Assembly: GCF_001610835.1 (NCBI RefSeq)
Contig: NZ_CP011270.1
Span: forward strand, 4,358,001-4,422,000
DNA length: 64,000 nt
Reading direction: 5' to 3'
Source: Planctomyces sp. SH-PL14
GTDB taxonomy: Bacteria > Planctomycetota > Planctomycetia > Planctomycetales > Planctomycetaceae
Position 1 is the first letter of the stretch. Each line of letters starts with the position of its first letter. This document shows, piece after piece, positions 13,111-34,144 of this stretch. Under the pieces are notes generated by a model that was given only the letters and a program-made list of their open reading frames with translations, was not told the origin of the DNA and searched no databases. Made by a program: the position numbers and the translations under genes.

Positions 13111-13112
13111 GC

Positions 13113-13442: not shown

Positions 13443-13573
13443 GTTTTCTCTCCATTCAAGCAAAGTGGCGTTGCGGAAAAGCTGCGTCGGCGACCGTTCT
13501 TCACGATCGCTGCCGACTCAGACACGTCTTTTCCGCGACGGGCGGCCTTGGGATCTCTACGCAACGGCAATTC

Positions 13574-13840
13574 TCAGCTTCTTCGAAGCACGTCGAGCTG
13601 CGACTCCAGCAGCCAGACCGTGCCGATAGAGCCGTCACGAATTAACTTACGTGCGACGCAATCGCCCCACGGCGTTAGGCGGAAGTCGTCTCCCTGCCGT
13701 TCGCCGAGACCATGCTCGCAGCAGAAGTCACACGCACCATCTTGCGACAGCGTTCCGCCCGTCCCGCTGATCACTCGCTGCATGGAGGTCATTTTAAGTA
13801 ACGCCACCTCGTCCCGTAACAAAACCAGATCTGTCTTCAT
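13574..13840 (-). CDS. Tiny winged-helix-like protein, family A copy 3
   Basis: 88 residues (MKTDLVLLRDEVALLKMTSM...). It shares LVLLRDEVALLK, CDFCCEHGLGE and RLTPWGDCVARKLI with the two plus-strand copies at 3.5 and 4.3 kb. It is the first gene of the A-B-C cluster on the minus strand. The two cysteines in FCCE are absent from copy 1 (YFCE), so they are unlikely to form a metal site. Confidence 0.6.
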   Translation of the reverse strand: MKTDLVLLRDEVALLKMTSMQRVISGTGGTLSQDGACDFCCEHGLGERQGDDFRLTPWGDCVARKLIRDGSIGTVWLLESQLDVLRRS

Positions 13841-14746
13841 TTCATTCCCTTGTGAGTCACTCTGCCGAAGGTGGCGACCGGCAGGTCACTCCATCCTGCC
13901 TCCATTCTCCCCCACTCTCCGTCAGGGGACACCCCGCACCTGGCGTCCCTCCCGGCATTGTCCACGGACTAGGCTTTTCCGGGGACGGACGGCCACATCA
14001 GCCCGAAGCGCGTCTAGCCGACGGCGACAACGCTTTGGATGTGGCTATGGCGGATGCAATCTGGTGTGAACGACGTTGGATGTTCGTGCTGATTTGCTGC
14101 GGTCTTCATCCGTCGCGGTTGGGGCTCGTTCTGGGGGGCCCGGACCCCGATGGAGGAAGACTGCACGAGCGAAGGAAAATGCCCCCCGTCCTGGATCAGA
14201 ATGGGGAACTCGGGGGGCGACGAGAACTTGACTCGCGTCAAGTCCTCGCGTGAGAGCGGAATGCCGCATCGTTTCCTTCGAGCGGGGTGGTATCGGGCTT
14301 GCGTGGCCAAGCCAGGACTTGGCGTCATTGATCATGCCTGGGAAAGTGGACGGTCGTGAGGTGGACTTGTAAGGAGTACAAGCCAGCACTTCCTTTCTCA
14401 CAGCCGAAGAGCGGGGGGGCGAGGTCGGATTCCTGATGAACCAATCGACTGCGGCGGAGCTTGATGGCAGCTGAAACACCGATTGACGTGACTTATCGAC
14501 ACTCGTAGAGTTTTCCCCACTCACCAACTTCACCCGGCTCTCGCTGGGAACTGTCTGCGACAGCATAAATCAACAAAGCATCCACTCGATTGCGGCCCAT
14601 GATGGCTGCACGAGTTCACTCCACTAACCCGCTTCTTTGCGGGTGACACGGTGCCCAGAATCCGGGTCGTGTCGAACCTTGCCATCGCGGATTCGCCCTC
14701 GTCGATTCTTTCATCGGCGAGTCTCTTCTCGCGATGGAGTGAACGG
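13841..14746. other. Long gene-free stretch before the Rep gene
   Basis: About 900 nt. Open frames on the minus strand (14014-14328 and 14045-14566) give partly protein-like text (SREDLTRVKFSSPPEFPILI) but no start context or recognised domain. This is also where an origin for the downstream Rep would be expected, but I cannot point to an iteron array or nick site. Confidence 0.35.
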
Positions 14747-16117
14747 ATGAGTCCGTTGGAAGATGGCCAGAACTGGTCCGCGCAGCAGGGATGTCACGGG
14801 GACGGCAGCGGGGATGTACTGCACGAACGCGAACGATCAAATGGTGCGGAACACGGTACGGAACAGCCCTCGCCGCTGTCGGCAGATAGCGGTCCCGCCG
14901 GTGGTGAGGAGCGACGAGCGGCCACGCTCGGAGCGATCGAACTGTCCGGCGGGGATTGCTGGGAGTCACTTCTGGAGGAGGAGGAAGACGCCGTTGAGAC
15001 CGGATCACCTATAACATCCGGTCTCAACATTTCAGTGCCAGGGGAGTGCAGCTACCTCGCGCACGGAATCGACTCGCTCGACATCGGGATCTACGGGCAG
15101 TTTGGGCCGATGCGATGGCAGCAGCTGGAAGGCGAGCTGACCAAGCTCAAGGAGTCGGCCAAGAACACGAGGGGTGTACTGCACCCATCGATTCCCGGAT
15201 GTCTCGTTCTGGCGCATGGAAAGCGATTTTATGAATGGCAGCTGACTCTTCCGGAATTCCACATCTTCATCCGGAGAAGCGAGTCCGCGAACGGCCAGGC
15301 TCCGAAGGTGATGGCCGCACTCGACTCCAGCCTCCTCTGGAAACACGGAGTCCACGGGGCTGTCGGCCTCGTCTTGGAGCAGGTAACGCAGCTCGGCATG
15401 TCGATAGACCGAGTGCAGGTTAGCCGATGCGATGTCTGCGCCGACTTCCACATCCCCGGCGGGCTCGACGACCAAGCGCTCCGGACACTGTTGGTGCCGA
15501 GGAACCTGAAGTATCGCGTCTTCGGCAAGAAGCGAATGGAGACGTTCCATGTCGGAGCCGGCACGTCATCGATTCAGTGCCGGATCTACGACAAGACGAA
15601 GGAGATCATCAAGAGCAAGAAGGAGTGGTTCTACGACATCTGGAAGCTGGAACGGGCGGAAGACGTGTGGCGAGTCGAGTTCCAACTGCGCCGTGAGGCG
15701 CTGAAGTCCTTTCAGATCGACTCTCTCGACGATCTGGACAAGAAGCTGGGTGGGCTGTGGAAAGCCCTCACAACGCTGTGCATCTCCTTCCGACACCGTG
15801 ACAACAAGAACGTCTCGCGTCGGACCGTCATTCCGATGTGGGCCAAGGTTCAGGACGTGGCGAGTCGGTTTGGCGAGGTCTCCGAGCTTCGCAGGATCAA
15901 CCCGCAACCGAGGGCTGATCTCAAGGGAGCGCTCGCGCAGCTCTGGGGACGGTTCGTCTCCGTTTGTGCCTTCTTCGGGATCACGGATCTCAAGGAAGGG
16001 CTCGCCGTCGTGCTGATGCTACTGGAGAACTATTCCAAAGCCGAGAGGTTTGGCGAGCTCGTGGCCATCCGAATGGTTCTGTTCGGCGTCTCAGAGGACA
16101 CGGAGGGGGACGAGTGA
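14747..16117 (+). CDS. Rep_trans-type replication initiation factor
   Basis: 456 residues from the ATG at 14747 (GGAG 7 nt upstream). The first 90 residues are acidic and disordered. The core (about 95-390) matches the 'replication initiation factor' (Rep_trans) family: a GIDSLDIGIYG strand, VQVSRCDVCADF, SSIQCRIYDKTKEI and WRVEFQLRREALK, corresponding to the family's 'R.D...D', 'RIYDK' and 'R.E..LR' motifs. Members nick the origin of rolling-circle plasmids, integrative elements and filamentous phages. The stop overlaps the start of the HTH gene (TGATG), and a tyrosine integrase lies opposite, so this is probably the replication module of an integrated mobile element. Confidence 0.78.
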   Translation: MSPLEDGQNWSAQQGCHGDGSGDVLHERERSNGAEHGTEQPSPLSADSGPAGGEERRAATLGAIELSGGDCWESLLEEEEDAVETGSPITSGLNISVPGECSYLAHGIDSLDIGIYGQFGPMRWQQLEGELTKLKESAKNTRGVLHPSIPGCLVLAHGKRFYEWQLTLPEFHIFIRRSESANGQAPKVMAALDSSLLWKHGVHGAVGLVLEQVTQLGMSIDRVQVSRCDVCADFHIPGGLDDQALRTLLVPRNLKYRVFGKKRMETFHVGAGTSSIQCRIYDKTKEIIKSKKEWFYDIWKLERAEDVWRVEFQLRREALKSFQIDSLDDLDKKLGGLWKALTTLCISFRHRDNKNVSRRTVIPMWAKVQDVASRFGEVSELRRINPQPRADLKGALAQLWGRFVSVCAFFGITDLKEGLAVVLMLLENYSKAERFGELVAIRMVLFGVSEDTEGDE

Positions 16118-16353
16118 TGTTCCTCACTGTTCAGGAAGTCGCCAATCGTCTCAGCATCAGTCGCGCGGCCGCGTATCAGCTGGTCGAGTCCGGGAAGCTG
16201 GCCCATCATCGAATCGGAGTGGGGCGCGGCGTGATTCGGGTTTCGGAAGAGGATCTCTCCCTCTACCTCGAATCCTGTCGCCGCGCTCCCGCTGAGAAGG
16301 CTCCGCAGTTACCCGTTGTTCCTCCCGTCCGTCTCAAGCACGTTCGGCTGTGA
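16117..16353 (+). CDS. Excisionase-like MerR/HTH_17 DNA-binding protein
   Basis: 78 residues. LTVQEVANRLSISRAAAYQL, then a GKLAHHRIG wing and a VSEEDLSLYLES helix form a classic helix-turn-helix of the excisionase (HTH_17) family. The ATG overlaps the Rep stop codon, so the two are coupled. The last 45 nt overlap the convergent integrase gene. It probably acts as recombination directionality factor, or as repressor of the element. Confidence 0.82.
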   Translation: MFLTVQEVANRLSISRAAAYQLVESGKLAHHRIGVGRGVIRVSEEDLSLYLESCRRAPAEKAPQLPVVPPVRLKHVRL

Positions 16354-17388
16354 CGTGATCGCCTGCTGGGCCGCCTTCTGAAGGTACTCCGGCTTCTTCG
16401 CCAAGTGCTGGTAGGTCCTGGCGAGCGTTGTGGCGTCGGAGTGGCCCATCAGGACGCTGACGGTGATGGGGTCGAGGTTCTGAAGTGCATTCGTCGCGAA
16501 GGAGTGTCGGAAGTGGTACGCGCAAACGGAGATTCCTGTCTTCTGCTTGATCCTGCGGAAGCGGCAATTGAGCGAGTCCTTGTTCCAGGGCCTACGCATC
16601 ACGTTCTTGAAGATCGCTCCCTCCACCGGGTGGCCCTTTCGGGTGACCATGTGTTGGCTGACGATCTCAAACGCGGGATCACTCAGGTAGATGACCCGTG
16701 GAGCCTTTTTGCCCTTCGCCTCGGACGGCGGAAATACGATTCGCCGGAGGTTCGGGTCGACGTGGCGGCGTTCGATCTTGGCTGCCTCTTGGGGGCGGAC
16801 GCCGGTGTGCCACAAGAACAACAGCAAATCCTTAAAACACTGGTCGCGGCTGACGGACAGAATCAGCTGGAACTGCTCCGGAGTGATGATTGTCTCTCGC
16901 CGAAGCTTCGGCGGGGCCTTCATGTGGGCGATCGGGGACGTCTCGATGTATCCCTCCTCCATTGCCCACTTGAGAGCCCGCTTTACGGCTCGCACGCCGT
17001 TGTGCTTCGTGCTGGTGTTCCAGCCTGTTTTCTTTGCCAGCCATGCTGTGACGTGGAACGGCTTGAGGGCGGGAATCTGCATCCGGCGGTCGATTGTCCG
17101 GCAGAAAGAGCTGAGAAACAGCTCGTAGTAATCGAACGTCGCGGGAGAGAGTTCTCGTTTGACGTAGTCCAGAAAAACGTCAACCAGCCCGATCAGCGAC
17201 ATCGCGCGGGCAGCATCCGCGATCGACTGCGGAGAATCTCCGGTCAGCATCAGCTGATGCCAACGGCGGACTGCTTCCGCCTCGTTCTCCTGCCCTTTGA
17301 CCAGCTTGACCTGGCGGCGTGCCCCGTCTGTTCGGACCTGAACATACCACCAGCCATCGTGGGCGCGAAACCAAGGTTTGGGATCCAT
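16309..17388 (-). CDS. Tyrosine recombinase / phage-type integrase
   Basis: 359 residues from the ATG at 17388; the longer open frame upstream crosses a terminator hairpin and is not used. An N-terminal AP2-like part (WFRAHDGWWYVQVRTDG) is followed by a SAM-like core-binding domain (about 75-165) and the catalytic domain. The active site is recognisable: Arg in LWHTGVRPQEAA, YHFRHSFAT (HxxR), GHSDATTLARTY with the nucleophilic Tyr. It is convergent with the Rep-HTH pair. The tRNA-Pro-like 25-bp core lies about 140 bp upstream at 17528-17552, a typical int-att arrangement. Confidence 0.9.
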   Translation of the reverse strand: MDPKPWFRAHDGWWYVQVRTDGARRQVKLVKGQENEAEAVRRWHQLMLTGDSPQSIADAARAMSLIGLVDVFLDYVKRELSPATFDYYELFLSSFCRTIDRRMQIPALKPFHVTAWLAKKTGWNTSTKHNGVRAVKRALKWAMEEGYIETSPIAHMKAPPKLRRETIITPEQFQLILSVSRDQCFKDLLLFLWHTGVRPQEAAKIERRHVDPNLRRIVFPPSEAKGKKAPRVIYLSDPAFEIVSQHMVTRKGHPVEGAIFKNVMRRPWNKDSLNCRFRRIKQKTGISVCAYHFRHSFATNALQNLDPITVSVLMGHSDATTLARTYQHLAKKPEYLQKAAQQAITSQPNVLETDGRNNG

Positions 17389-17439
17389 GACGAACCTCTC
17401 AACTGAGTGAAACCACTCGCTGAGCTGAAAGGCTCGCGG

Positions 17440-17475
17440 GGCCTCATCGAGTTGCAGCTCGATGAGGCCTTTTTT
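17440..17475 (+). terminator. Rho-independent terminator
   Basis: A perfect 12-bp stem (GGCCTCATCGAG / CTCGATGAGGCC) with a 6-nt loop and six T residues on the plus strand. It lies just upstream of the minus-strand integrase and would stop plus-strand transcription reaching the att region. Confidence 0.8.
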
Positions 17476-17527
17476 CATGGGGTTGCTGCAAAAGCTGCTG
17501 CAAGTCCCTTTTCGCGTCGTCGTAAGT

Positions 17528-17552
17528 AAAGTCGGGGTGACAGGATTTGAAC
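17528..17552. repeat. Second copy of the tRNA-Pro-derived 25-bp core (candidate att)
   Basis: Identical over 25 bp to 5692-5716 (begins AAAGTCGGGGTGACAGGATT). On the minus strand it is the T-loop to acceptor end of tRNA-Pro. Sequence to the right does not continue a tRNA. It lies about 140 bp from the integrase start, as expected for an attachment site; polarity and partner are unproven. Confidence 0.6.
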
Positions 17553-18489
17553 TCGCCGAGGGTAAGGCCAAGCTGCGGACTTGGAAATCATCGTCATTCG
17601 CACCCGCGAACGATGGCCATTTCCATGTCACCAACACATGTCGTAACCGATTCTGTCTCCAAAGGTTATGTCCGCCCATGGAATGGGCCAATCGGTCGCA
17701 AAGCGACCGAGAGACCTGCTTCTCGCGATCGACGAAGAGCACAAGGGTCGGCGACCTCGAACCCTTACTGATGGCCGGAAGCATGCGTTCTGACCTGCTC
17801 TGCTCCCATTGCGGCCGGATTACTGCCTGCGACGTTTCATGGGCCAAAGCCGAACACCGAGCCAGGCCAGGGACAAGGGCGGCGGATGCTACCCGAACGA
17901 GGCGTCGGGCTCCGACGGAATTTGACGGAGAATCACCCACCCGACGATCGCCGCGCATCTGAATGTAGGCCTCGCGTGCCACCTACCGCGTCGACCGGAG
18001 TTCGGTGGGGCCGCACGAATCGTTCAAAGAAGCCGCCCGTCCATGCTGATCTTCGACGAAGTCGAGCGTCTTCTGACAGGCCCTGGCAGCGTCTTTCTTC
18101 GCTTTGTCCCCGCCTGTCTGCGCGCGGCAGATCGATACTTCCACGTGACAACCGACAGTCACATTGAGCCAGTGGTTCTTGGGCGTGCGCGGTTTCAGAG
18201 CTCAGATGTCAGGCGGCCGCAACGAGTGATCCTGAACCAGTCCACGAGTCGACGGGAGTCTCATCCTTCCGCTCCTCAACCGATGCATGTGGAGTGAACC
18301 GTGACTGAGGCGCTTCGTTGCTACTGCACTCCCAAATACCCCCCCCCCGAAAAGCTTGGCCTGTTTTTCAAGCGAGAACTCGATCACGCATGTGAAGGTG
18401 TGTACACTACACTGGTCGTGCGAACCACTAGGCAAGGAAGCGCCGCAGGAGAGAACTTGATTTTGCTGCATTCGTGACAGGTACTTTTC
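17553..18489. promoter_or_regulatory. Gene-free region and presumed Wadjet promoter
   Basis: Over 900 nt with no supported gene. The operon starting at 18490 must be transcribed from the right end, where an A/T-richer segment (about 18350-18470, after a nine-C run near 18341) contains GTGTACACTACACTGG and CGCAGGAGAGAAC. I cannot name a sigma-factor box with confidence. Confidence 0.35.
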
Positions 18490-19968
18490 ATGCGACTCGG
18501 CAAGCTCCTCGTCTACTTCGAGACCTCGCCGGCATTGCATTTACTCCGCGCCCGAAACGCTCCATTCATCATCGATTTCTTGGACCGTCAGTTTAAGCAG
18601 AGTCGACAGATCGCAGTTCCGCACTCAGATCTGCTCGCAAGCCTGACCGCCTATCAGGAAGAGCTGCAGGAAAGTCATCCCGAAGCGCTTATAGGGAAGC
18701 CCGAGGTCTACATCAGCGACTGGTGCTCGCGCGAGACGCGATGGCTCCAGCGATTTCTGGAGGCGGGGCGCGAAGAACCGGTGTACCAACTCACGCCCCA
18801 CACTGAGGACGTGTTCGCCTTCCTCGATCGTGTTCTGGATCAGGATCTTGGGTTCGTTGGGACAGAGTCCCGCCTCAAATTGGTGATCGAAACGTTGTCA
18901 GACCTGGTGATCGGGGCGTCCGATGATCCCCAAACCCGGCTCCACCATCTCCGCGAAGAGCGAGACAAGCTGCAAACGGAGATCGAACAGATCGAGAACG
19001 ATGGCCGGATCTCGAAGTACCGACCGGCACAGATCCGGGAACGATTTGCGACGGCGGTGTCCTTGCTTCGCCAGCTCCAAGGCGACTTCCGAGCGGTGGA
19101 AGAGTCATTCCGCGACATCACGACGCAGGTCCAGCAGCGGCAAGTCGGTGGGGAGCAGACGCGCGGTAAGATCCTTGAGTTCGCGTTGGATGCCGAAGAC
19201 CTTCTGATGCAGGAAGACCAGGGGGTCAGCTTCTACGAGTTTGTTCGGCTGATTCTTTCCCCAACGCAGACGGAACGACTCGAAAAGATCATTCGCGAAA
19301 TCCGCCAGATTCCAGAACTGGTCCAGCAGCAGGACGGTCTGGAAACGGTTCGCAATATGGTCACGTTGCTTCAGAGCGAGGCCGAGAAGGTCAAACGCAC
19401 GAATCAGCGACTTTCCGCCAGCTTACGGCGCCTTCTGGATGTGCGAGCCCATGCCGAGCGGCAACGGATTGCAAAGCTCCTTCAAGAGATTCAAGTTTTG
19501 GCGGCCGACTTCGCCGAGTCTCCAGACTCGACGGAGGTGGGGATCCAGCTCGACCTTGATCTCGCTATCGAATCTCCCTTTCGCCGGACCTTCTGGGTCG
19601 ATCCCCCTCGCTTTGAGGACATCGATCTATCCAACTTCGAACCCGACGCCGCTGAGAGAAACGCCGCATTTGCGCAACTTGCCGCTTTGAAACGGCTCGA
19701 CTGGCACGGGATGCGGGACTGCATTCGTCACATGTTGGCGATTCACCATTCGCCAACGCTCAAGCAACTGCTGGAGCTCCATCCCGCGGATGCGGGAGTG
19801 GTGGAAGTGATCGGTTACATCCAGATCGCTGCAGATGACGGGCATTCAATCGATTCCGCTCTCATGGAGACGGTCGTCGTCTCGTCCGGGCCGCCGGGGA
19901 ACCATTTCTTTCGCGTCACGATTCCCCGTGTCACCTTCCATCCCGCGAGGAATCATCATGCGAAATGA
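18490..19968 (+). CDS. jetA: Wadjet protein JetA (DUF3375, MukF/kleisin-like)
   Basis: 492 residues. The N-terminal winged-helix region (LLRARNAPFIIDFLDRQF...) and the following helices match DUF3375, the JetA kleisin-like subunit of type I Wadjet. A coiled-coil stretch (about 155-215, EERDKLQTEIEQIE) and a C-terminal helical region follow. JetA bridges the JetC SMC heads and binds JetB, forming the loop-extruding complex that senses small circular DNA. It is the first gene of jetABCD; its end overlaps jetB by 11 nt. No strong Shine-Dalgarno is visible before the ATG, but the N-terminal homology begins right here. Confidence 0.9.
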   Translation: MRLGKLLVYFETSPALHLLRARNAPFIIDFLDRQFKQSRQIAVPHSDLLASLTAYQEELQESHPEALIGKPEVYISDWCSRETRWLQRFLEAGREEPVYQLTPHTEDVFAFLDRVLDQDLGFVGTESRLKLVIETLSDLVIGASDDPQTRLHHLREERDKLQTEIEQIENDGRISKYRPAQIRERFATAVSLLRQLQGDFRAVEESFRDITTQVQQRQVGGEQTRGKILEFALDAEDLLMQEDQGVSFYEFVRLILSPTQTERLEKIIREIRQIPELVQQQDGLETVRNMVTLLQSEAEKVKRTNQRLSASLRRLLDVRAHAERQRIAKLLQEIQVLAADFAESPDSTEVGIQLDLDLAIESPFRRTFWVDPPRFEDIDLSNFEPDAAERNAAFAQLAALKRLDWHGMRDCIRHMLAIHHSPTLKQLLELHPADAGVVEVIGYIQIAADDGHSIDSALMETVVVSSGPPGNHFFRVTIPRVTFHPARNHHAK

Positions 19969-20572
19969 GTATCCGGAGTTTCGCGACTGGAGCGTGGCCG
20001 CAGTGAAGCTGCTGCAGGGAGTCGTCGAGTTCGAGGACGGCCGCGCCTGGAATCTTGTCCTCGCGAACAGCTCGCAACTCGAGCAGTATTTCGCTCGGCT
20101 GGGACTGCAACTGGTCGTCGACGAATCCGAAGGCTTGGCCTACTTGCGGCAGTTCGCGGCAGAGACTCTTCCGGCCGGGTACGAGGCAATCCCCAAGCTC
20201 TTCAAGGCGACCCGGCTTAGCTTCGGACAGACGCTTCTGTGCGTACTGCTCCGAGACGCACTTCGTCGCTTCGAGGATGAGGACACCCGCGACGACCGAT
20301 GCGTTGTCGATGAGTCCGAACTCCTTGATCAGTGGAAGGGCTACTTTGCAGCCCACGGCGATGAGGTTCGGCAGCAGCGAGAGCTGCAGTCCAACCTGAA
20401 GAGACTCGAAGATCTCGGCTTCGTTCGGCGATTCGGTGAAGAGCCTTCCCGCTGGGAAGTGCGTCGTATTCTCAAAGCTCGCCTCACCGCCGAAGAACTT
20501 GAGCATTTGCAACGACAGTTACGGACGGCCATCGAGCGACGAGGCCAGAATAGTCTGTCAACGGCGTCCTGA
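19958..20572 (+). CDS. jetB: Wadjet protein JetB (DUF4194, MukE-like)
   Basis: 204 residues from the ATG at 19958, with GCGAGGA about 7 nt before it inside the end of jetA. The body has the DUF4194/MukE-like layout: paired winged helices, with GLAYLRQFAAE, RLSFGQTLLCVLLRDAL and a C-terminal wing LEDLGFVRRFGEEPSRWEV followed by RRILKA. JetB binds the JetA kleisin and DNA. The 11-nt overlap with jetA implies translational coupling; jetC follows after 39 nt. Confidence 0.9.
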   Translation: MRNEYPEFRDWSVAAVKLLQGVVEFEDGRAWNLVLANSSQLEQYFARLGLQLVVDESEGLAYLRQFAAETLPAGYEAIPKLFKATRLSFGQTLLCVLLRDALRRFEDEDTRDDRCVVDESELLDQWKGYFAAHGDEVRQQRELQSNLKRLEDLGFVRRFGEEPSRWEVRRILKARLTAEELEHLQRQLRTAIERRGQNSLSTAS

Positions 20573-20611
20573 GAGGAAGAACGCAGGTACTGAGCAAGTG
20601 GAAACGGAGCT

Positions 20612-23600
20612 ATGATCACGCAGCATCGGAGTCTATCCTCGTTCGTCGAATCGAGGTCCAAGGGATATCGACTTCGCAAAGTCGAACTCTGGAACTGGGG
20701 TACGTTCGACGAGCATATTTTCACTGTTGCTCCGAAGGGCGAATCGACCCTTCTGATTGGCCAGAACGGTTCAGGCAAATCGACCTTGGTCGATGCCATT
20801 CTGACATTGCTCGTTCGTCCAGGCGTTAGGAACTTCAATGTCGCCGCGGGAGCCAAGAAGCGCGAACGGGACGAGCGTTCGTATCTGCTCGGTGCCTACG
20901 ACCGTGGGAGTGACGACGATGGAGGAGTTCGCGTCAAGTATCTCCGGCCGAAGGGGGAAAAGTACTCGGTGATCCTGGCTTGTTTCCGCAATCAGGGCAT
21001 CGACAAGGTCTTTACGATCGCTCAGGTTCTCTATCTGGCCGGAGACCAGAGCGTCGAGAAGGTGTATTGCTGCGCCGAGGGCGAACGGTCCATTCGCGAG
21101 GACTTTGGACATCTGGAGTCCACGGAGAACATTGTCAAAGTCCTGAAGGGCCGCGGCATTCGCGCGACCCGGACCTTCCAAGAGTTTGAGGCGTGGTTCA
21201 GCAAGGCGACGCACGTCAAACCGAAGGCGATGGAGGTCTTCAATCAGACTGTCGCAGTGAAGGACATCCAGCGGCTAAACGATTTCATTCGCGACCACAT
21301 GCTGGAACCTCACAACTGGGAAGAAAAGTTTGATCGTCTCCTGGGGCACTTCACACAGCTGAGTGAAGCGCACGACAGCCTCGTCCGCGTCCGCCAACAG
21401 CGAGATCTTTTGGAACCTGTCGCCCGCATCGGCGAAGAATACCGGCATGCAAAGACCCGACTGGACCACGCCGAAAGGCTTGTGAATGCCTCCGCCGCCT
21501 ATTTCGCTCAGAGAACAGTCGACCTTTTCGTGCCGGCCATCGCCGAGGAGGAACGTCAGCGGAAGGAAACTGCCGAACAACGAGAAACGGTGAAGGAGCA
21601 GATTCGCGTTCTTCAGGAGCGCGCTCGGCTTCTTCGAAACGAGATCGAGAACGTCGGTGGGGATCGGCTCAAACTGATCCCCGGACTGATCGCTTTCGAA
21701 GGCGCCCATGCCGGTCAAAAACGAAAGGCGCACGGAAGGTTCCAGGAAGCGCTGGACCGTTTGTCTCTCTCTGTCGAAGTTCACGACGAAGCCTCACTCG
21801 TGTTAGTGCGGAGGTGCGTTGCAGAACTCCAGGCTGAGTTCACGGCAGAAGCGGCGAGGCTCACCAGTGAACGAGACGCATCGCTCCTTGTTCGTGGCGA
21901 AGCCCGCCGAGACCTCGTCACGTGCCGCGAAGAACTGGATGGACTGAACCGTCGCAAAGAGAATATCCCTGAATGGTCGGTTCAGCTCCGCGACGCCCTC
22001 TGCCGCGAGCTGGGATTGCCGCTACGCGAGTTCCCCTTTGCTGCGGAGTTGATGCAAGTCAGTGCAACGGCCCGGGACTGGGAGTCCTCGATCGAGAAAG
22101 TGCTCCGGGGGCTCGCATTGAGCCTGCTGGTGCCCGACAGGTACTACCGAACGGTTTCTCAGTACATCGACAGGACTCGGCTGACCGCCCAAGGGCGAGG
22201 ACAGCGACTTGTGTACCTTCATGTGGCAGCGCGTCCCACTGGGCCTGGAACGAAGCCAGATCGCAATTCGCTGGTTGGCAAACTGGACTTTCGTGAAGGC
22301 CACTCGCTGCTTCCGTGGCTGAAAGGAGAACTGCTCGATCGCTTCGACTATCGATGCTGCGAGACGATTGAGGAGTTCCATGAGCAGCGGGGAATGGCGA
22401 TCACCCGGAATCGACATGTGAAGGCTGGACGCCAGCGGCATGAAAAGGACGACCGCGAGCAGGCGGTCGACCCTCGCAACTTCGTCTTGGGATGGGACAA
22501 CCGTGAGAAGAAGCAGCGGATCGCAGCCGCGATCAAACGCCTTGAGGAGATCGATGCCGTCGAGTCGTCCAAAATCCAGACCGTCGATGACGCGACGGCC
22601 CAGCTGCAGTTCCAGCATAGTGCGATTCTGGAGATCCAGCGGGTAACACGCTTTGCTGAGATCGACTTCGCCACGCACGATCGAGAGGTTCGCCGACTCG
22701 AAGAAGAGCGGGATGCCATCGAGGCCGGATCAAGTACCCTCCGGTCGTTGAAGACGAGGCTGAGCGACACCGAAGCGGAAGAGGCCGATCTGAGACAGCG
22801 GGATGAGGGACTGGTTGGTGACGAACGAGAGCACCAACTCCGGATTCGCGAGGCGAACACGCTTGTTGTCAATGCCCGGTCTGAGCTGGGGCGTCGCGAA
22901 GCCGGTGGTCGATTGGAAGCCGATCGGAAAGTCTTCAGCGAACTCGACTCGGAGTTGGCCAGTCCGCCACTGACGACGGACAATTTCTTCGACCGTCGAG
23001 AGCGATTCCGCAGGGAACAGGATCGACGAATTGCAGACCTGAAGGAAGAGGTCGCGCCGAAACAGAATCATCTGACGGAGGCGATGTCACGTTTCTTGCG
23101 ATCGGCTCCCGAAGAGTCGGCCGACTTGAGCGCGTCAGTGGACTACCTCGGCAGTTTCTTGGGGCTTCGACAACGGATTCTGGAGGATGACCTTCCTCGA
23201 CATGAGCAGCGGTTCAAGGAACGGCTCAATCGGAACGTCATCGAAGACATCGGGTTCTTTCGCAGCGCTCTGGAACAGGAGCGGCGCAAGATCGAGGAGA
23301 AGATCGAACTGCTCAATGCCTCGCTGCAAAAACTCGAGTACCGGCTGGGGACGCACATCCAGCTGGAGCCACGGCCGATCCGGGACGTCGACATCACAGA
23401 TTTTCAAACCCGACTCCGCGAGTGCGTGGAGGGGAGTTTTGAAGACACGGCCGAAGCCAACGAGGCGCGCTTCATTCGGATTAAAGAGTTGATTCTGCGT
23501 CTGCAGGACGAGGAGAATCGCACTTGGCGGAACAAGGTCACCGACGTCCGTCGCTGGTTCGATTTTCTCGCGGTCGTCATCGACCGTGAGACAGGCAAGT

Positions 23601-24010
23601 CGGTCTCGGTCTACCAGGACAGCAGTGGGCAGTCCGGAGGCGAGAAAGCGAAGCTGGCTTTCACGATTCTGGTGGCCGCCATCGCCTACCAGTATGACCT
23701 CGACCCGGAGAGTTCCGTCAGCGACCGCTTTCACTTTGTCGTCGTCGACGAGATGTTCTCCAAGGTCGACGACCAACACGCCGAGTATGCCTTGGAACTG
23801 TTCAAGCAGTTCGGACTCCAAGTGCTGATTGTGGCCCCATTGGATGCCAAGGCGCGAGTCACTCAACCGTACGTGGGTTCTTACCTCCACGCGGTGAAGA
23901 AGAACAATCGGTCGGCGATCTATGAGATGACAGCGGAAGCGTTCGAGGAGTGCGCCGGGCATCATGAGACTTCCGAACCGACGGCAGCACATCACCATGA
24001 TTCGGCCTGA
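20612..24010 (+). CDS. jetC: Wadjet protein JetC (MukB/SMC-like ATPase)
   Basis: 1132 residues, the usual JetC length. Walker A is GQNGSGKST (about residues 50-58). Long coiled coils with a hinge region lie in the middle (about 290-720). The ABC signature SGQSGGEKAKLAF is near residue 1010 and Walker B FVVVDEMFS near 1042, with an Asp-Glu pair for ATP hydrolysis. It is the motor of the plasmid-targeting loop extruder. The start at 20612 is preceded by CGGAG. All ATPase motifs look intact. It overlaps jetD by 14 nt. Confidence 0.95.
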   Translation: MITQHRSLSSFVESRSKGYRLRKVELWNWGTFDEHIFTVAPKGESTLLIGQNGSGKSTLVDAILTLLVRPGVRNFNVAAGAKKRERDERSYLLGAYDRGSDDDGGVRVKYLRPKGEKYSVILACFRNQGIDKVFTIAQVLYLAGDQSVEKVYCCAEGERSIREDFGHLESTENIVKVLKGRGIRATRTFQEFEAWFSKATHVKPKAMEVFNQTVAVKDIQRLNDFIRDHMLEPHNWEEKFDRLLGHFTQLSEAHDSLVRVRQQRDLLEPVARIGEEYRHAKTRLDHAERLVNASAAYFAQRTVDLFVPAIAEEERQRKETAEQRETVKEQIRVLQERARLLRNEIENVGGDRLKLIPGLIAFEGAHAGQKRKAHGRFQEALDRLSLSVEVHDEASLVLVRRCVAELQAEFTAEAARLTSERDASLLVRGEARRDLVTCREELDGLNRRKENIPEWSVQLRDALCRELGLPLREFPFAAELMQVSATARDWESSIEKVLRGLALSLLVPDRYYRTVSQYIDRTRLTAQGRGQRLVYLHVAARPTGPGTKPDRNSLVGKLDFREGHSLLPWLKGELLDRFDYRCCETIEEFHEQRGMAITRNRHVKAGRQRHEKDDREQAVDPRNFVLGWDNREKKQRIAAAIKRLEEIDAVESSKIQTVDDATAQLQFQHSAILEIQRVTRFAEIDFATHDREVRRLEEERDAIEAGSSTLRSLKTRLSDTEAEEADLRQRDEGLVGDEREHQLRIREANTLVVNARSELGRREAGGRLEADRKVFSELDSELASPPLTTDNFFDRRERFRREQDRRIADLKEEVAPKQNHLTEAMSRFLRSAPEESADLSASVDYLGSFLGLRQRILEDDLPRHEQRFKERLNRNVIEDIGFFRSALEQERRKIEEKIELLNASLQKLEYRLGTHIQLEPRPIRDVDITDFQTRLRECVEGSFEDTAEANEARFIRIKELILRLQDEENRTWRNKVTDVRRWFDFLAVVIDRETGKSVSVYQDSSGQSGGEKAKLAFTILVAAIAYQYDLDPESSVSDRFHFVVVDEMFSKVDDQHAEYALELFKQFGLQVLIVAPLDAKARVTQPYVGSYLHAVKKNNRSAIYEMTAEAFEECAGHHETSEPTAAHHHDSA

Positions 24011-25154
24011 AGACATCCAGCGAAAGGCGACGAGCCTCTATCGGCCATTCCAATGGGCTTGGCTCGATGACCAGCCGTTCTTTCCGAGAGTGATTCCCTG
24101 CGACAAGACCTTGGACTCTAACCTAGCCGTTGCAAGTGAATCCGTCCAACAGCTCAGAAATGGCTCCAAGGAAAGGATCGGCTTTGGATACACCGTGGAA
24201 TGGGAGGATCGCAATTCACGAACACATGGTCGCAATCGCTTTCCGCGGCAGATTCTGTTCGAGACCCAGGACGATTTCTTAGGTCTCATTGGAAAAGAAC
24301 GCGAGTTTGCTCAGTTCGCCCGCTCCGTCTCGGAGCTGCGCAAGAGATATCCGCAGTTGGCACCGTGGGTACGCGCTCATCCCGCTGAGGTCGTCGATTC
24401 CGCCGCGGAGCTCGACGGGCTGTTGCAGGTGCTCGATTTCTTGTTGGCCCATCCGTGGCCGCAGCTCTTCGCTCGGGAATTGCCTTTGCCGCTCGACACC
24501 AAGTTCGTAGAGCGCAATCGTGGCATTTTGAGGTCTTGGCTCGACCTTGTTCTTCCTCCCCACGCGATCCGTGCGGACGAGGAGCACTTCGATCGACGGT
24601 TCGGGCTCCGTTACGTCGAACCGTTGATCTCCGTGCGATTTCTGGATGAGGCTGTCAGGCAGAGGGCGAACCTGCCCTGGAGCGAATGCGCGATTCCGTT
24701 GCATTCACTGGCATCCCATCCGATCGCGGCGGAGTCGGTGTTGATCGTCGAGAACAAGATCAATCTGCTGACACTACCTCCGATCGCGGGGGCTATTGCG
24801 CTGGGAGGCCTTGGTAACAGCGTCAGCGATCTTCGATACGTTACATGGCTGTCTCAGCTAGCTGTCTGGTACTGGGGAGATATCGACGTCGACGGATTCG
24901 AGATTCTCTCGCGCCTCCGAACCGTCTTTCCGAATGTCAGAAGCCTGTTCATGGACCAGAAGTCGCTGTTTGCCCTGCGCCCCACCGTCAGGGGTGTCGG
25001 AAATGGACGATTAGGAAGACTGGGAATGAACCTTCTTCCTGAAGAAGCAGCCGCGTTCCAGGTCTGCTCAGCCTCGAATCTCCGCATCGAACAGGAGCGG
25101 ATTCCTCAGGACTTCGTGGTCTCACACATCCAGGCGGCTTTTGTCGCTAGATGA
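23997..25154 (+). CDS. jetD: Wadjet nuclease JetD (DUF3322-DUF2220, Toprim-like)
   Basis: 385 residues from the ATG at 23997 (MIRPEDIQRKATS); an ATG at 23964 would add 11 residues. The N-terminal DUF3322 part is followed by a DUF2220 Toprim-like nuclease domain. Its acidic residues are visible: Glu in LIVENKINLL (about residue 250) and the DxDxD set in GDIDVDGFE (about 294-300). JetD cleaves small circular DNA once the JetABC motors stall, giving anti-plasmid immunity. Fourth gene of an unbroken jetABCD operon. Confidence 0.92.
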   Translation: MIRPEDIQRKATSLYRPFQWAWLDDQPFFPRVIPCDKTLDSNLAVASESVQQLRNGSKERIGFGYTVEWEDRNSRTHGRNRFPRQILFETQDDFLGLIGKEREFAQFARSVSELRKRYPQLAPWVRAHPAEVVDSAAELDGLLQVLDFLLAHPWPQLFARELPLPLDTKFVERNRGILRSWLDLVLPPHAIRADEEHFDRRFGLRYVEPLISVRFLDEAVRQRANLPWSECAIPLHSLASHPIAAESVLIVENKINLLTLPPIAGAIALGGLGNSVSDLRYVTWLSQLAVWYWGDIDVDGFEILSRLRTVFPNVRSLFMDQKSLFALRPTVRGVGNGRLGRLGMNLLPEEAAAFQVCSASNLRIEQERIPQDFVVSHIQAAFVAR

Positions 25155-25517
25155 TCGCTTTGCCGACCTTGCGAAGTCGGATCGTCAATGCGGCGTGCAG
25201 TGTGCCCGTTGACCAGAACAGGGCATTGCGTAAAGGTATGGCCATTCATGGTGGCGCCTGCAGTTCAAGGCGTTGGCGGTTCCTATGTTGGAAGGGGCTC
25301 CGCCGCCCGTCTACACGACGCCTCAATGCCAGCCGCATACTTCCGGAACGTGGCGTACCAGATCCACAATCTGACGAACCAGAATTCCAACACGCGATTC
25401 TGCAAGAACTTACGACTTCTTCGGACTCCGGATGCACCACTGGATGCACCAGCTTCGAGCTGGTCTCGTTCATTCTAAGCTGGCCATCCCTCTCAGTTTC
25501 ACTGAGGGCCGCCCTCA

Positions 25518-25565
25518 CGAAAATCGCCTCCACACCATTACCTAACGAGGTGGAGGCGATTTTCG
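25518..25565. repeat. Perfect 16-bp inverted repeat
   Basis: The arms 25518-25533 (CGAAAATCGCCTCCAC) and 25550-25565 are exact complements, with a 16-nt spacer. No T-run follows in either direction beyond the TTTTCG inside the arm. It could be a transcription terminator, a recombination site or a relic of a mobile-element end. Confidence 0.7.
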
Positions 25566-25632
25566 TTGCGATGGCGCAGACGCTGGAGGGACGACAACGG
25601 AGCGGAACCGAACGACTCACGCCCTACGAATG

Positions 25633-25665
25633 ACACCCCGGTCAGATGATCGGGGTGTTTTCGTT
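25633..25665 (+). terminator. Rho-independent terminator
   Basis: An 8-bp GC-rich stem (ACACCCCG / CGGGGTGT) with a 10-nt loop, followed by TTTCGTTT. It is well placed to end transcription arriving from the Wadjet operon. Confidence 0.65.
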
Positions 25666-26081
25666 TAACTCGCCCCAAAGCTGCAATCATCGGACACAGA
25701 GCGAGGTCTTCGACTACAGAACTGGACACATGGTCATTCGTGGCATTTGATCACCACTTTTTGTTTTCTGAAAAATCATCACAAGATGATGCGATCGAGG
25801 TGGTTGCGTAGACGTCGCCTACGCTGTCGGCGCTGAAAAACATTTTTTTTCGGCGATGGGAAGCCACAGTCACGCGTAAAATACGGGTTATGAGAGTCGA
25901 AGCGGAGCTTCCGATTCTGCATTGCGGCCGTGATGGAAGTTGAGGATGCGGACCAGGGGCTACAGGGGCTTACAAGGCCTTTGTGCAAAACGGTTTGCGT
26001 GTACGGGATCAATCTACTGCCGGATTTGCGGTGCGCATGGTGCCTCCCGAATCCAAGTGACCATTGGTTTGGGAGTTTCAA

Positions 26082-27230
26082 ATGCACAAGATGACGTTCT
26101 ATCCCCTGGGCAACGCGGATTCATGCCTAATTGATCTGGAGAACGGGAAGAAGATCCTGTTCGACTTCGGCGATGAAGGGAACCCGGACGACCAGGATGA
26201 CAAGCGGATCGACCTCTGCACGACGCTGCGGGAGGACATGGAAGCCGCAGACAAAACCAGTTACGAGATCGTTGCGATCACGCACCTCGACAACGACCAC
26301 ACCTGCAAGGCGGAAACATTCTTCTGGCTCGATCACGCCAAGAAGTACCAGGGTGATGGCCGGTTCAAGATCGACACGTTGTGGGTGCCGGCCGGCGCGA
26401 TCACTGAGTGTCGCAACGATCTTGGTGATGGTGCAAAGGCCCTCCAGGCAGAGGCTCGACACCGGCTCAAGAAGGGATACGGCATCTGCGTCTTCTCACG
26501 CCCCGAAGCCCTGAAGGACTGGCTCGAAGAACAGGGTCTCACGTTGGAGGATCGCGACCAGTTCTTCAAGGATGCCGGTGAGCTTGCGCCCGGGTTGAGT
26601 CTTGCCGCCGACAACGTCGAGTTCTTCGTCCACAGTCCGTTTGCCTCTCGGCAAGATGGGGTGCTCTTCGACCGCAATCGCGACTCGCTTGTCATGCAGG
26701 CGACGTTCAATGTTCTCGGCACCACTACACGTGCCATCCTCGGCTCGGATGCGGACCACGAAGATTGGACCGAGATCGTCAACATCACTAAGTACCACAA
26801 GCGAGAAGAGCGGCTGGAGTGGGACATTTTCAAACTGCCTCACCACTGCTCATATCTGACGCTCGGCCCCAAGGAGAACAAGGGCGTTGACAAGACAACG
26901 CCTGTCGCTGCCACCAAGTGGCTGTTTGAAGAAAAGTCTAACCGCGGGTGCATCATCATCTCGCCGAGTTGGCCTATTCCGGCGAAGGGCACTCAGGAAG
27001 ACAAAGACATTCAACCGCCTCACCGGCAGGCGAAGAACTACTATGTGGAAGACGTGGTCAATCCGAAAGACGGCGAATGGAAGGTAACGATGGAACATCC
27101 CAAGGTCGCCAGTCCTGAACCGATCACGATTGAGATCACAAGACGGGGGGCGATGCTTCAGAAGCGGATTGCCGTCGGTGCCGCTGCCGTTACGACTGTC
27201 AGTGCTCCTCGGGCCGGGAAACGCAAGTGA
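26082..27230 (+). CDS. MBL-fold (ComEC/Rec2-type) metallohydrolase
   Basis: 382 residues from the ATG at 26082 (GGGAG upstream; a TTG at 26064 is less likely). Metallo-beta-lactamase fold of the ComEC/Rec2-like branch: FDFGDEG early, metal motif THLDNDH (His68, Asp70, Asp72, His73), a later Asp in LGSDADHEDW, and His in LPHHCSY. Substrates of this branch are usually nucleic acids or nucleotides. No membrane segment, so cytoplasmic. The TGA overlaps the GTG start of the ubiquitin-like gene, so the two are made together. I recall MBL proteins described next to prokaryotic E2/E1/JAB fusions; its target here is unknown. Confidence 0.85.
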   Translation: MHKMTFYPLGNADSCLIDLENGKKILFDFGDEGNPDDQDDKRIDLCTTLREDMEAADKTSYEIVAITHLDNDHTCKAETFFWLDHAKKYQGDGRFKIDTLWVPAGAITECRNDLGDGAKALQAEARHRLKKGYGICVFSRPEALKDWLEEQGLTLEDRDQFFKDAGELAPGLSLAADNVEFFVHSPFASRQDGVLFDRNRDSLVMQATFNVLGTTTRAILGSDADHEDWTEIVNITKYHKREERLEWDIFKLPHHCSYLTLGPKENKGVDKTTPVAATKWLFEEKSNRGCIIISPSWPIPAKGTQEDKDIQPPHRQAKNYYVEDVVNPKDGEWKVTMEHPKVASPEPITIEITRRGAMLQKRIAVGAAAVTTVSAPRAGKRK

Positions 27231-29479
27231 ACTACCTGGAACCAAGTGGCATCATCGCAGACCGGGCTGCACTCCAAATCCCGCGAGCAATCGCGCTTGC
27301 GGCGGCTGTGGCCGATTATGGGCTGCCCTATGTTGAGTTCGTCGAATGTCGACAGCACGTGGACGGCGATGACCTCGCCGAAACCGTCGTGTTCGACGTC
27401 GAGGTAGAACGGCCGCAGCAGACTGCGAACGATATCCGGAAGAAGGAGCGGATCTCAGTCACGTTCCTTCCTTCCGACAATTGGTACCCCGAGGTGCTCG
27501 CACTTCGCGATAACTTCCCACGAGTCTCACACACGAACGTGCGGGAGAAGGAGTTTCCCCGCAGCCTGTGTCTCTACGATCAGCCTTGGGAACAGATTGC
27601 AATCCGTTGGACGGCAGCCAGCGTCGTCGAGCGAATCAGGTTTTGGCTGGCGGAGACCGCCAAGGGAACCCTTCACCAGGATGATCAGCCACTCGAACCG
27701 ATGTTGCTCGGAAACGGCTATCGGATTGTCCTTCCGTTCGACTTCTTTGACGGCGAGAGCAACGAAACGTTCGAGGAACTGAAGGTCTCCTTCGCGACGA
27801 ACGAGAAGGACTGCCGGCTCCTTCGCGCCGAGAAGGGACAAGGAGCCGGGGGGCTTCCGTTCCTTGCACTCTCCTTCGTGGCAGAGGCACAGATGCATGG
27901 TGCGATTCGCCATGCTCCGAAGAACCTCAAGGAACTGGATGAGTTCCTGAAGCCGGCCGGTGTCCCCATTGTCGAACTCCTCTACAAGAAGCTGGAGGAC
28001 TGGAACAAGAAAGAATTGCTGGACAAGAAAATCCTGCTGGTCGTCGCGTTCCCACTGACACGGAACGGTGAGGAAACGATCGAAAGCAGTGATTTGTGGG
28101 TCTTCTTGACCACCCGCAGTGTTGGTGATGTCGGCGTCGCAATCGGCCTTTGGGACAAGCTCGCCGAGCACTCGTACGGCCGACCAATCCTTCGAGATCC
28201 GAAATCCGATGGACAAGCCATTGGCTTGAGTATCTTGTCTCCTCTGTTCCACCTTTCAGCAGAGACGGCGGCAATATCCAGCGGACTCACTTCCGATCTC
28301 CGTCCGAGCATTGCGATCGGGGCGGGGGCTCTCGGGTCCCAAGTTCTGCGTCTGCTGGCTCAGTCGGGATTTGGGGCCTGGTGCGTAGTCGACAAGGATG
28401 TTCTCCTACCTCATAACGTCGCCCGCCACGCCCTGGACAACCGCTGGATCGGTTTCCCCAAAGCTCTGCCAGTTGCCATCGAGTTGCGGAGCTTCTATGA
28501 CCGGGACGGTGATCTGAAATGGATCGATGCTGATCTGCTCCGCCCTGACGACAAAAAGCAGCAGCTCGACAAGGAGTTGGCCGAAGCAGAGCTGGTGCTT
28601 GATCTCGCCGCGTCTATTCCGGTTTCTCGCCATCTCACGTATGACGTCCAGAGCAACGGGAGGCGGATTGCAGCGTTCTTAAATCCCCGGGGGACGGACC
28701 TCGTGCTGCTCGTGGAGGACACAGCGCGAACGATTGGGCTGGATTTCCTGGAGATGCAGTATTACCGAGCGATCTGCCAGACCGCTGAGCTGGAGAATCA
28801 CCTGTCACCGCCAGACGGTCGCCTTCGATATGCTAGGTCATGCCGAGACGTCAGCTCGACGATCCCGAATTACGCAGTCGCAATGCATGCGGCCATCGCC
28901 GCGAAAGCGATTCGTGATGCTGTCCAAGGTGCGAACGCGGAAATTCGGATCTGGACTTCTGATCCGGAGAGCCTCGAAGTCCGTCACCTTCGGGTAGCGG
29001 TGTCGTCATCGAAGCGAAGCCGTCTCGGAGAATGGACGCTGGTCGTGGATGACCAATTGACGGCCCGAATCGCGAAACTTCGGCTCGCAAAACTTCCACA
29101 CGAAACCGGCGGTGTGCTGATCGGCTCCTACGATCTGGCTCGAAAGATTGTCTACGTAGTCGATACGATCCCTTCGCCCCCCGACAGCGAAGAATGGCCG
29201 ACGTTGTACATTCGTGGGATGAAGGGACTGAAGTTCCAGGTGGACAAGGTCCAGGAGATGACGGGTGGCCAAATCGAATATGTCGGGGAGTGGCACTCTC
29301 ATCCAGCCGGCTGCCCCTGCCTGCCGAGTGACGACGATCTTAAGGTCTTCAGTTGGCTGACTGAGAACATGGACGTGGCTGGCCTTCCGGCGTTGATGGG
29401 TATCGCTGGGGATCACGGCTACACAGAGTGGTACCTTGGCCAGATGCTACGAAGCGGTGGGTGGAGGGCCGGAACTTAG
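27227..29479 (+). CDS. E2-like / E1 (ThiF) / JAB fusion protein of a ubiquitin-like pathway
   Basis: 750 residues with a GTG start overlapping the upstream stop. Residues about 50-165 look E2-like: a strand ISVTFLPSDNWYP, then RSLCLYDQPWE with Cys115 at the likely catalytic site, then a long helix. Residues about 350-580 are an E1/ThiF adenylating domain: GAGALGS (365-371), VVDKD (388-392), HNVARHALD, and Cys539 in SCRDVSST as candidate catalytic Cys. Residues about 605-750 are a JAB/JAMM protease: Glu626 in LPHETGG, HSHP (His690, His692), Ser701 and Asp704. This combines conjugation and deconjugation in one chain; no separate ubiquitin-like gene is seen. A 200-residue middle part (about 165-345) is unassigned. 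Confidence 0.85.
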   Translation: MNYLEPSGIIADRAALQIPRAIALAAAVADYGLPYVEFVECRQHVDGDDLAETVVFDVEVERPQQTANDIRKKERISVTFLPSDNWYPEVLALRDNFPRVSHTNVREKEFPRSLCLYDQPWEQIAIRWTAASVVERIRFWLAETAKGTLHQDDQPLEPMLLGNGYRIVLPFDFFDGESNETFEELKVSFATNEKDCRLLRAEKGQGAGGLPFLALSFVAEAQMHGAIRHAPKNLKELDEFLKPAGVPIVELLYKKLEDWNKKELLDKKILLVVAFPLTRNGEETIESSDLWVFLTTRSVGDVGVAIGLWDKLAEHSYGRPILRDPKSDGQAIGLSILSPLFHLSAETAAISSGLTSDLRPSIAIGAGALGSQVLRLLAQSGFGAWCVVDKDVLLPHNVARHALDNRWIGFPKALPVAIELRSFYDRDGDLKWIDADLLRPDDKKQQLDKELAEAELVLDLAASIPVSRHLTYDVQSNGRRIAAFLNPRGTDLVLLVEDTARTIGLDFLEMQYYRAICQTAELENHLSPPDGRLRYARSCRDVSSTIPNYAVAMHAAIAAKAIRDAVQGANAEIRIWTSDPESLEVRHLRVAVSSSKRSRLGEWTLVVDDQLTARIAKLRLAKLPHETGGVLIGSYDLARKIVYVVDTIPSPPDSEEWPTLYIRGMKGLKFQVDKVQEMTGGQIEYVGEWHSHPAGCPCLPSDDDLKVFSWLTENMDVAGLPALMGIAGDHGYTEWYLGQMLRSGGWRAGT

Positions 29480-29482
29480 ACA

Positions 29483-34129: not shown

Positions 34130-34144
34130 TCTGTTCCCCTGGTC

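What the first reader, a model, noticed from the sequence alone, without database searches (positions are those of the whole stretch)
18490..25154. Complete, apparently intact type I Wadjet system
Seen: jetA (DUF3375), jetB (DUF4194), jetC (SMC with Walker A, signature and Walker B) and jetD (DUF3322-DUF2220 with Glu and DxDxD) in tight order with overlaps at A/B and C/D and no frameshift. Established: Wadjet cleaves small circular DNA. The system is known, but its place beside the E2-E1-JAB operon and a kinase triad suggests a multi-system island.
Basis: partly seen in the sequence, partly recalled or inferred. Interest (0 to 1): 0.5.

Follow-up and report, generated by a model that had tools for sequence, protein, structure and literature searches.

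The report
Ordinary type I Wadjet plasmid-defence operon
A planctomycete bacterium carries, on a probably acquired stretch of its chromosome, an intact four-gene Wadjet system of the well-known kind that cuts small circular DNA such as plasmids; the find is ordinary, apart from one subunit being shorter than in the best-studied examples.

Summary
Four intact genes, jetA-jetB-jetC-jetD, lie at 18490-25154. Every subunit matches PADLOC type I models best, and the JetC ATPase and JetD nuclease residues are all kept (25 of 25 JetC and 20 of 20 JetD checked). It is a new member of a known kind: a type I Wadjet on a planctomycete chromosome. Corrections: JetD most likely starts at 23997, and only the first two Asp of "DxDxD" are invariant. 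The multi-system island is partly supported: GC is low (0.580 against 0.656), recombinases flank it, and the neighbour is the 6A-MBL anti-phage system by NCBIfam. That adjacency occurs in 0 of 24 related loci (7 of them shorter than 20 kb), so it looks like shared real estate rather than one machine. JetC and RpoB identities disagree, which points to horizontal transfer. The point of some interest: JetB as called lacks the N-terminal tail with the JetD-contacting IFDR motif, whereas a same-family genome (G181) carries a different Wadjet with a tailed JetB starting MSNIFDR. Two type I lineages thus occur in one planctomycete family, perhaps with different ways of holding the nuclease.

The parts
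18490..19968 (+). jetA (kleisin-like subunit, DUF3375), 492 aa
   Evidence: Pfam DUF3375 1.7e-93; PADLOC JetA1 6.7e-100; PDB JetA 8dk1_A 8.5e-18
19958..20572 (+). jetB (KITE subunit, DUF4194), 204 aa from the likely start; begins about 40 residues later than solved JetB chains; overlaps jetA by 11 nt
   Evidence: Pfam DUF4194 2e-34; PADLOC JetB1 2.1e-47, best model 195 positions long; offsets of 39 and 43 residues to PDB JetB chains; start judged from relatives
20612..24010 (+). jetC (SMC ATPase), 1132 aa; Walker A GQNGSGKS from residue 50, signature SGQSGGEK from 1005, Walker B VVVDE from 1043
   Evidence: Pfam AAA_29, SbcC_Walker_B; PADLOC JetC1 1081.9 bits; PDB JetC 8dk2_C 2.4e-65; motif columns
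23997..25154 (+). jetD (nuclease: DUF3322 and Toprim JetD_C), 385 aa from the likely start (ORF open from 23964); E252, D295, D297, E365, E367; overlaps jetC by 14 nt
   Evidence: Pfam DUF3322 5e-37, JetD_C 5.5e-36; PADLOC JetD1 6.1e-126; PDB MksG 8b7f 6.9e-15, JetD 8q72 1.3e-9, 7til 2.4e-7; model pLDDT 83.3; Foldseek
25518..25565 (+). 16-bp perfect inverted repeat (25518-25533 and 25550-25565) downstream of jetD, possible end of the Wadjet transcript
   Evidence: read from the sequence; inference
25632..25659 (+). 12-pair hairpin with T-rich tail between the Wadjet and 6A-MBL operons
   Evidence: the number of terminator-like sites there (7) is not above shuffles (mean 7.9), so suggestive only

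Best explanation
This is a complete type I Wadjet (JetABCD) system. JetA (kleisin), JetB (KITE) and JetC (SMC ATPase) form a loop-extruding motor that reels in DNA until, on a small circle, its two halves meet; this licenses the Toprim nuclease JetD to cut, so that small circular plasmids are destroyed and the chromosome is spared. Shown here: four intact genes, type I assignment, retention of ATPase and nuclease residues. Taken from work on other type I systems: loop extrusion, sensing of small circles, cleavage, plasmid exclusion. Inferred more weakly: since JetB lacks the N-terminal tail that contacts JetD in another type I system, JetD is probably held by the kleisin JetA, as found for C. 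glutamicum MksF and MksG. The operon was probably acquired horizontally.
For: Type I models for all four subunits. Solved relatives at E <= 0.001 are only JetA, JetB, JetC, JetD and MksG chains. JetC G50, G53, G55, K56, S1008-G1009-G1010, D1046-E1047 are the same in 25 of 25 sequences, and JetD E252, D295, D297, E365, E367 in 20 of 20. In the alignments these JetD residues fall on E248 of 8q72 (mutated to Ala in that chain) and, taking 106 off the fusion-chain numbers of 8b7f, on MksG E236, D279, D281, E349 and E351; E236A and D279A drastically impaired MksG nuclease activity (PMC10123090, passages). JetD model: the only Foldseek hits with E <= 0.001 are 8b7f (MksG) and the two chains of 7til (JetD). 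The assembly is one contig, so no plasmid is seen, which agrees with plasmid exclusion but does not prove it. Transfer: window JetC is 61.3% identical to that of G327 (another family; RpoB 68.6%) but 50.4 and 49.9% to the two of G024 (same family; RpoB 79.6%); JetC of G024 and G257 is 94.5% identical with RpoB 77.5%.
Against: No assay. JetB as called lacks the JetD-contacting tail, so coupling may differ. PMC10123090 (passages) thinks MksG Tyr258 the likely catalytic Tyr; the window has Asn there (N274; Tyr in 3 of 20 JetD). The same paper says that Tyr is not conserved in JetD, for which two conserved Glu were proposed instead; the window keeps both. Foldseek TM-scores for the whole JetD are low (about 0.4), so the model supports the family, not a conformation.
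Confidence: 0.93

Rival explanations
1. The operon mainly organises the chromosome, as a MukBEF/Mks-type condensin, and plasmid restriction is a side effect.
For: JetB also matches Pfam MksE (5.6e-13) and the best solved relative of JetD is MksG. Two related genomes keep intact jetABC with no JetD_C match in the genome, with dN/dS between them of 0.206 (JetA), 0.209 (JetB) and 0.106 (JetC).
Against: Those values are higher than that of a neighbouring transporter gene (0.06), so constraint may already be relaxed there. The window keeps jetD intact. DUF3375 passes its cut-off in only 13 of 392 sampled planctomycete genomes, with a transfer-like pattern, unlike a core condensin. C. glutamicum MksBEFG is itself a plasmid-defence system (PMC10123090, passages).
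Confidence: 0.08
2. The system is intact in sequence but disarmed: without the JetB tail the nuclease cannot be coupled to the motor.
For: Window JetB begins 39 and 43 residues later than two solved JetB sequences. A review reports JetD contacts with an IFDR motif at the JetB N-terminus (PMC10586767, passages).
Against: 18 of 23 JetB examined lack such a tail as called, from planctomycetes, one Bacteroidota genome, Streptomyces and Thiodictyon, while JetD residues stay fixed. The best PADLOC JetB1 model is 195 positions long. In C. glutamicum the kleisin binds the nuclease (PMC10123090 section 29).
Confidence: 0.04
3. Wadjet is cargo of an integrative element that uses it against competing plasmids, as one functional island with the neighbouring 6A-MBL system.
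For: GC of 16309-36038 is 0.580 against a mean of 0.656 (sd 0.016, lowest 0.606) in 20 chromosome samples of 20 kb. Tyrosine recombinases at 16309-17982 and 38867-40123, and a weak Rep_trans-like gene at 14651-16117. A homologue of the right recombinase (47.7%) lies about 2 kb beyond jetD in G238.
Against: Of direct repeats of 18 nt or more in 8000-46000 only two pairs were found, and the one that brackets the region (8255 and 45524, 95%) has its right copy inside the ORF at 44535-48389; shorter repeats were not sought. 0 of 24 related loci carry the 6A-MBL, triad, Rep-like or left-integrase genes. 6A-MBL cap2_3 passes its cut-off in 2 of 392 genomes, and the other one, G044, has no DUF3375 match. 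Low GC (0.61) continues over 1-14000.
Confidence: 0.25

Closest known systems
Type I Wadjet JetABCD with solved structures (8q72 E. coli; 7til P. aeruginosa; 8dk1-3)
   Same: Four subunits, JetC ATPase motifs, JetD Toprim residues
   Different: JetB begins about 40 residues later; after the DxD the solved JetDs read W where the window has D299. P. aeruginosa and Cupriavidus plasmid copies are 26.5 and 25.8% identical at JetC and form a separate JetC clade
MksBEFG of Corynebacterium glutamicum (called type I Wadjet in PMC10123090)
   Same: MksG is the best solved relative of JetD by sequence and fold, with the same metal-binding residues, both Glu, and DxDxD
   Different: MksG Tyr258 is Asn274 in the window; MksE itself was not examined here
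Wadjet loci of planctomycete MAG ACE_PLA28 (L004, L007)
   Same: All four genes; JetC 74 and 70% identical
   Different: No 6A-MBL, triad or window-type integrase in the stretches held
Wadjet of G181 (L039), same family as the host
   Same: Four ORFs in the same order, catalytic residues kept
   Different: JetC 24% identical; JetB of 237 aa starting MSNIFDR, JetD with W after DxD
6A-MBL anti-phage system (NCBIfam NF058523, NF058524), the neighbour at 26064-29479
   Same: Both proteins above the curated cut-offs (652.2 against 320; 385.7 against 220 bits)
   Different: Not part of Wadjet; probably its own transcript

Membership tests
Type I Wadjet | Four genes jetA-jetB-jetC-jetD in order on one strand, no frameshift | tested here: met
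Type I Wadjet | Subunits match type I rather than type II or III models | tested here: met
   Best PADLOC hits JetA1, JetB1, JetC1, JetD1. Among rows shown, type II/III models appear only for JetD (best 0.017 for JetD2, 0.00045 for JetD3); for JetC 25 of 56 rows were shown
Type I Wadjet | SMC ATPase motifs (Walker A, signature, Walker B) | tested here: met
   25 of 25 JetC examined
Type I Wadjet | JetD Toprim nuclease with its acidic residues | tested here: met
   E252, D295, D297, E365, E367 in 20 of 20; Foldseek
Type I Wadjet | JetB N-terminal tail with IFDR motif (reported for one system; not part of the definition of the type) | tested here: not met
   Absent in the window as called; even the longest open frame (ATG 19835) has no such motif
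Type I Wadjet | Cleavage or exclusion of small circular DNA | not testable with these tools
   needs expression
6A-MBL anti-phage system (neighbour) | MBL-fold protein and E2-E1-JAB (cap2_3) fusion | tested here: met
Integrative mobile element | Recombinase with flanking attachment repeats | tested here: inconclusive
   Recombinases present; no convincing repeats of 18 nt or more

The most novel reading that the evidence does not exclude
Type I Wadjet comprises two coupling designs: a tailed one, in which the JetB N-terminal IFDR tail holds the nuclease and JetD reads DxDxW, and a tail-less one (the window, most planctomycete copies seen here, Streptomyces, Thiodictyon), in which the kleisin JetA holds and releases JetD. 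Both circulate in one planctomycete family and even one genus, and in the tail-less kind JetABC can outlive the loss of JetD.
Probability: 0.2. Interest if true: 0.45.

Novelty: new member of a known kind. Interest (0 to 1): 0.2.

Why it matters
It adds a planctomycete example of an established anti-plasmid system, with quantified signs of horizontal transfer. Practically, such hosts may resist the small plasmids used for genetics. The tailed and tail-less JetB in one family offer a natural comparison for how the nuclease is tied to the motor.

Tried and rejected
Another Wadjet type: rejected. Loss of catalytic residues: rejected. A fifth operon gene at 25151-25633, overlapping the jetD stop: rejected; best Pfam hit 0.042, no PADLOC hit, no homologue in 24 related loci, and the inverted repeat lies inside it. 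A second Wadjet in the genome: none seen; one JetC match, one JetD_C match, and the second DUF3375 match is below the cut-off (22.8 against 28.6 bits). A conserved Wadjet/6A-MBL pair: rejected. Literature: no paper held with "6A-MBL"; 7 with Wadjet and planctomycet-, none with Wadjet in title or abstract (listing only); listings were otherwise not read beyond the three papers opened (PMC10586767 and PMC12287153, PMC10123090: passages, with section 15 of the second and section 29 of the third).

Limits: 17 of the 24 related loci are 20 kb or longer, seven shorter, so absence of neighbours is only partly testable. Rows not in the residue counts: JetC of L008 and L013 (cut), L036 (match over residues 16-446 only) and L046 (none). 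A first RpoB comparison took a wrong frame for G000 and gave 22-24%; it was redone and only those values are used. In the RpoB tree the G000-G024 fork has support 88/96, so family branching is not fully settled; the transfer argument rests on identities.
Full report
What is there. The window is bases 4358001-4422000 of a single-contig genome of 8,442,773 bases. The nearest JetC relatives among named genomes are planctomycete MAGs. At 18490-25154 four genes run on +: jetA 18490-19968, jetB 19958-20572, jetC 20612-24010, jetD to 25154. jetA and jetB overlap by 11 nt; 39 nt separate jetB and jetC. The jetB frame is open further up, to ATG 19835 (41 codons), but L004, L006 and L007, near relatives with this gene, have 9 open codons and no start there. 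The listed jetD ORF starts at 23964; 14 of 15 homologous hits begin at its residues 7-12, so ATG 23997 is likelier.

Identity. Pfam finds DUF3375, DUF4194, AAA_29 with SbcC_Walker_B, and DUF3322 with JetD_C. PADLOC puts all four in type I: 333, 160, 1082 and 419 bits. NCBIfam names none of the four above its cut-offs. Solved relatives at E <= 0.001 are Wadjet and Mks subunits only. A JetD model from seven aligned sequences (pLDDT 83.3) has as its only Foldseek hits with E <= 0.001 the MksG chain 8b7f and two JetD chains of 7til, with TM-scores of about 0.4.

Catalytic residues. JetC G50, G53, G55, K56, S1008, G1009, G1010, D1046 and E1047 are the same in 25 of 25 sequences, and JetD E252, D295, D297, E365 and E367 in 20 of 20. 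In one search, E252 falls on E248 of 8q72 and on MksG E236, D295 on MksG D279, and E365 and E367 on E349 and E351. PMC10123090 (passages) reports that E236A and D279A drastically impair MksG. The third Asp, D299, is D in 6 of 20; it is W in three, the P. aeruginosa and Cupriavidus plasmid copies and L039. MksG Tyr258, which that paper favours as catalytic in MksG, corresponds to N274 and is Tyr in 3 of 20; the paper notes that it is not conserved in JetD.

How it works. The review PMC10586767 (passages) describes type I JetABCD as sensing small circular DNA, probably by loop extrusion, with meeting of the motors activating JetD. Nothing here contradicts or proves this for the window. One feature differs from the solved systems. 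Window JetB residue 26 aligns with residue 65 of the chain 8as8_C (also in 8q72, an E. coli system by its title), and residue 29 with residue 72 of 8dk1_E. The review places a JetD-contacting IFDR motif at the JetB N-terminus, citing work that I take, by recall, to be on P. aeruginosa. Of 23 JetB examined, three carry a tail: the P. aeruginosa plasmid copy (251 aa, with LFDQ), the Cupriavidus plasmid copy (251 aa, starting MSIFDT) and L039 of G181 (237 aa, starting MSNIFDR). Two Bacteroidota copies, L011 and L014, are ambiguous: an upstream ATG would add a short stretch with IFSE. The other 18 are 187-214 aa as called, with no such motif after a usable start codon; in a few of them, the window included, the frame stays open upstream. 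The same three tailed systems are those with W after the DxD of JetD. In one search the two solved JetDs also have W there, and MksG has D, like the window. In C. glutamicum the kleisin MksF binds MksG with KD 6 uM, and no MksG-MksE binding was seen (PMC10123090 section 29); the length of MksE was not looked up. I therefore infer that JetA holds JetD in the window's system. This is a hypothesis.

Distribution and transfer. DUF3375 passes its cut-off in 13 of 392 planctomycete genomes sampled. Eight of the 13 (the host included) have all four genes by tblastn. G181 has four ORFs in order, with JetA by DUF3375, JetC and JetD by tblastn, and JetB by place and motif. G048 and G069 have jetABC and no JetD; G368 has JetA, JetB and a JetC match over residues 16-446 only, no JetD; G353 has a JetA fragment. 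In genus g3, 4 of the 9 sampled genomes have DUF3375 above the cut-off, in three states: tailed, complete (G181); tail-less, complete (G238); without jetD (G048, G069). G181 and G238 share 98.0% RpoB. Window JetC against RpoB identity: G327 (another family) 61.3 and 68.6; G024 50.4 and 49.9 with 79.6; G257 50.3 and 77.3; G307 48.6 and 74.3; G238 41.0 and 76.3; G048 41.4 and 75.9; G069 41.3 and 75.9. G024 and G257 share 94.5% JetC and 77.5% RpoB. The JetC tree joins the window with L004, then L007, then G327, each fork starred. Transfer explains this best; old paralogy is not excluded for deeper splits, as G024 and the ACE_PLA28 MAG each hold two copies.

Surroundings. GC is 0.580 over 16309-36038 against 0.656 (sd 0.016, lowest 0.606) in 20 chromosome stretches; 1-14000 is 0.61 and 41000-64000 is 0.652. 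Tyrosine recombinases lie at 16309-17982 and 38867-40123, a serine recombinase fragment at 30626-31186, a sub-threshold Rep_trans match at 14651-16117. An inverted repeat (25518-25565) and a terminator-like hairpin (25632-25659) lie between the two operons, which suggests separate transcripts. None of 24 related loci carries the 6A-MBL or triad genes at tblastn 1e-5; one (G238) has a homologue of the right recombinase. cap2_3 passes its cut-off in 2 of 392 genomes, G000 and G044; a match at E <= 0.001 of any strength is in 372 of 392, and in 10 of 14 control genomes, none of the latter above the cut-off. G044 has no DUF3375 match.

Verdict. An intact type I Wadjet; new member of a known kind; low interest. 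The tailed and tail-less JetB and the relatives that keep jetABC without jetD are what a specialist might follow.

Noticed in passing
L042 and L043 (genomes G048, G069): Intact jetABC without jetD; no JetD_C match in either genome. dN/dS between the two: JetA 0.206, JetB 0.209, JetC 0.106, against 0.06 for a neighbouring transporter gene. A 21-residue JetD-start-like stretch follows jetC in L042 (E 4.3, suggestive only).
   Followed up: partly
L039 7625-14270 (genome G181): A second, distant kind of type I Wadjet in the host's family, with tailed JetB starting MSNIFDR; G238, with 98.0% identical RpoB, has the tail-less kind.
   Followed up: partly
L011 and L014 (Bacteroidota), upstream of jetB: An upstream ATG would give JetB a short N-terminal stretch with IFSE, possibly a version of the JetD-contacting motif.
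   Followed up: no
window 26064-30199: 6A-MBL anti-phage system (MBL-fold protein and E2-E1-JAB cap2_3 fusion), followed by a 238-aa probable membrane protein at 29483-30199.
   Followed up: partly
window 31336-35986 (-): Kinase, PP2C phosphatase and VWA protein in a row, with a DUF4236 gene upstream at 34877-35986.
   Followed up: no
window 14651-16117: Weak Rep_trans-like protein (E 2.6e-4, below cut-off) beside a tyrosine recombinase; three distant matches elsewhere in the genome.
   Followed up: partly
window 36242-37235: Two overlapping ORFs in different frames, the second with DDE_3 (4.2e-33), looking like one frameshifted transposase gene.
   Followed up: no
L036 (G368) and L046 (G353): Wadjet remnants: JetC match over residues 16-446 without JetD, and a JetA fragment only.
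   Followed up: partly
L047 and L050 (plasmids NZ_CP133756.1, NZ_CP044066.1); phage record MT835499.1: Wadjet operons on circular plasmids of 522 kb and (conjugative) 249 kb, and a JetC homologue on a phage record.
   Followed up: no
window 1-14000: Stretch poor in long ORFs, with a DUF4096 transposase-like ORF at 5097-5825 and an RsbRD_N/STAS gene at 6271-7128.
   Followed up: no
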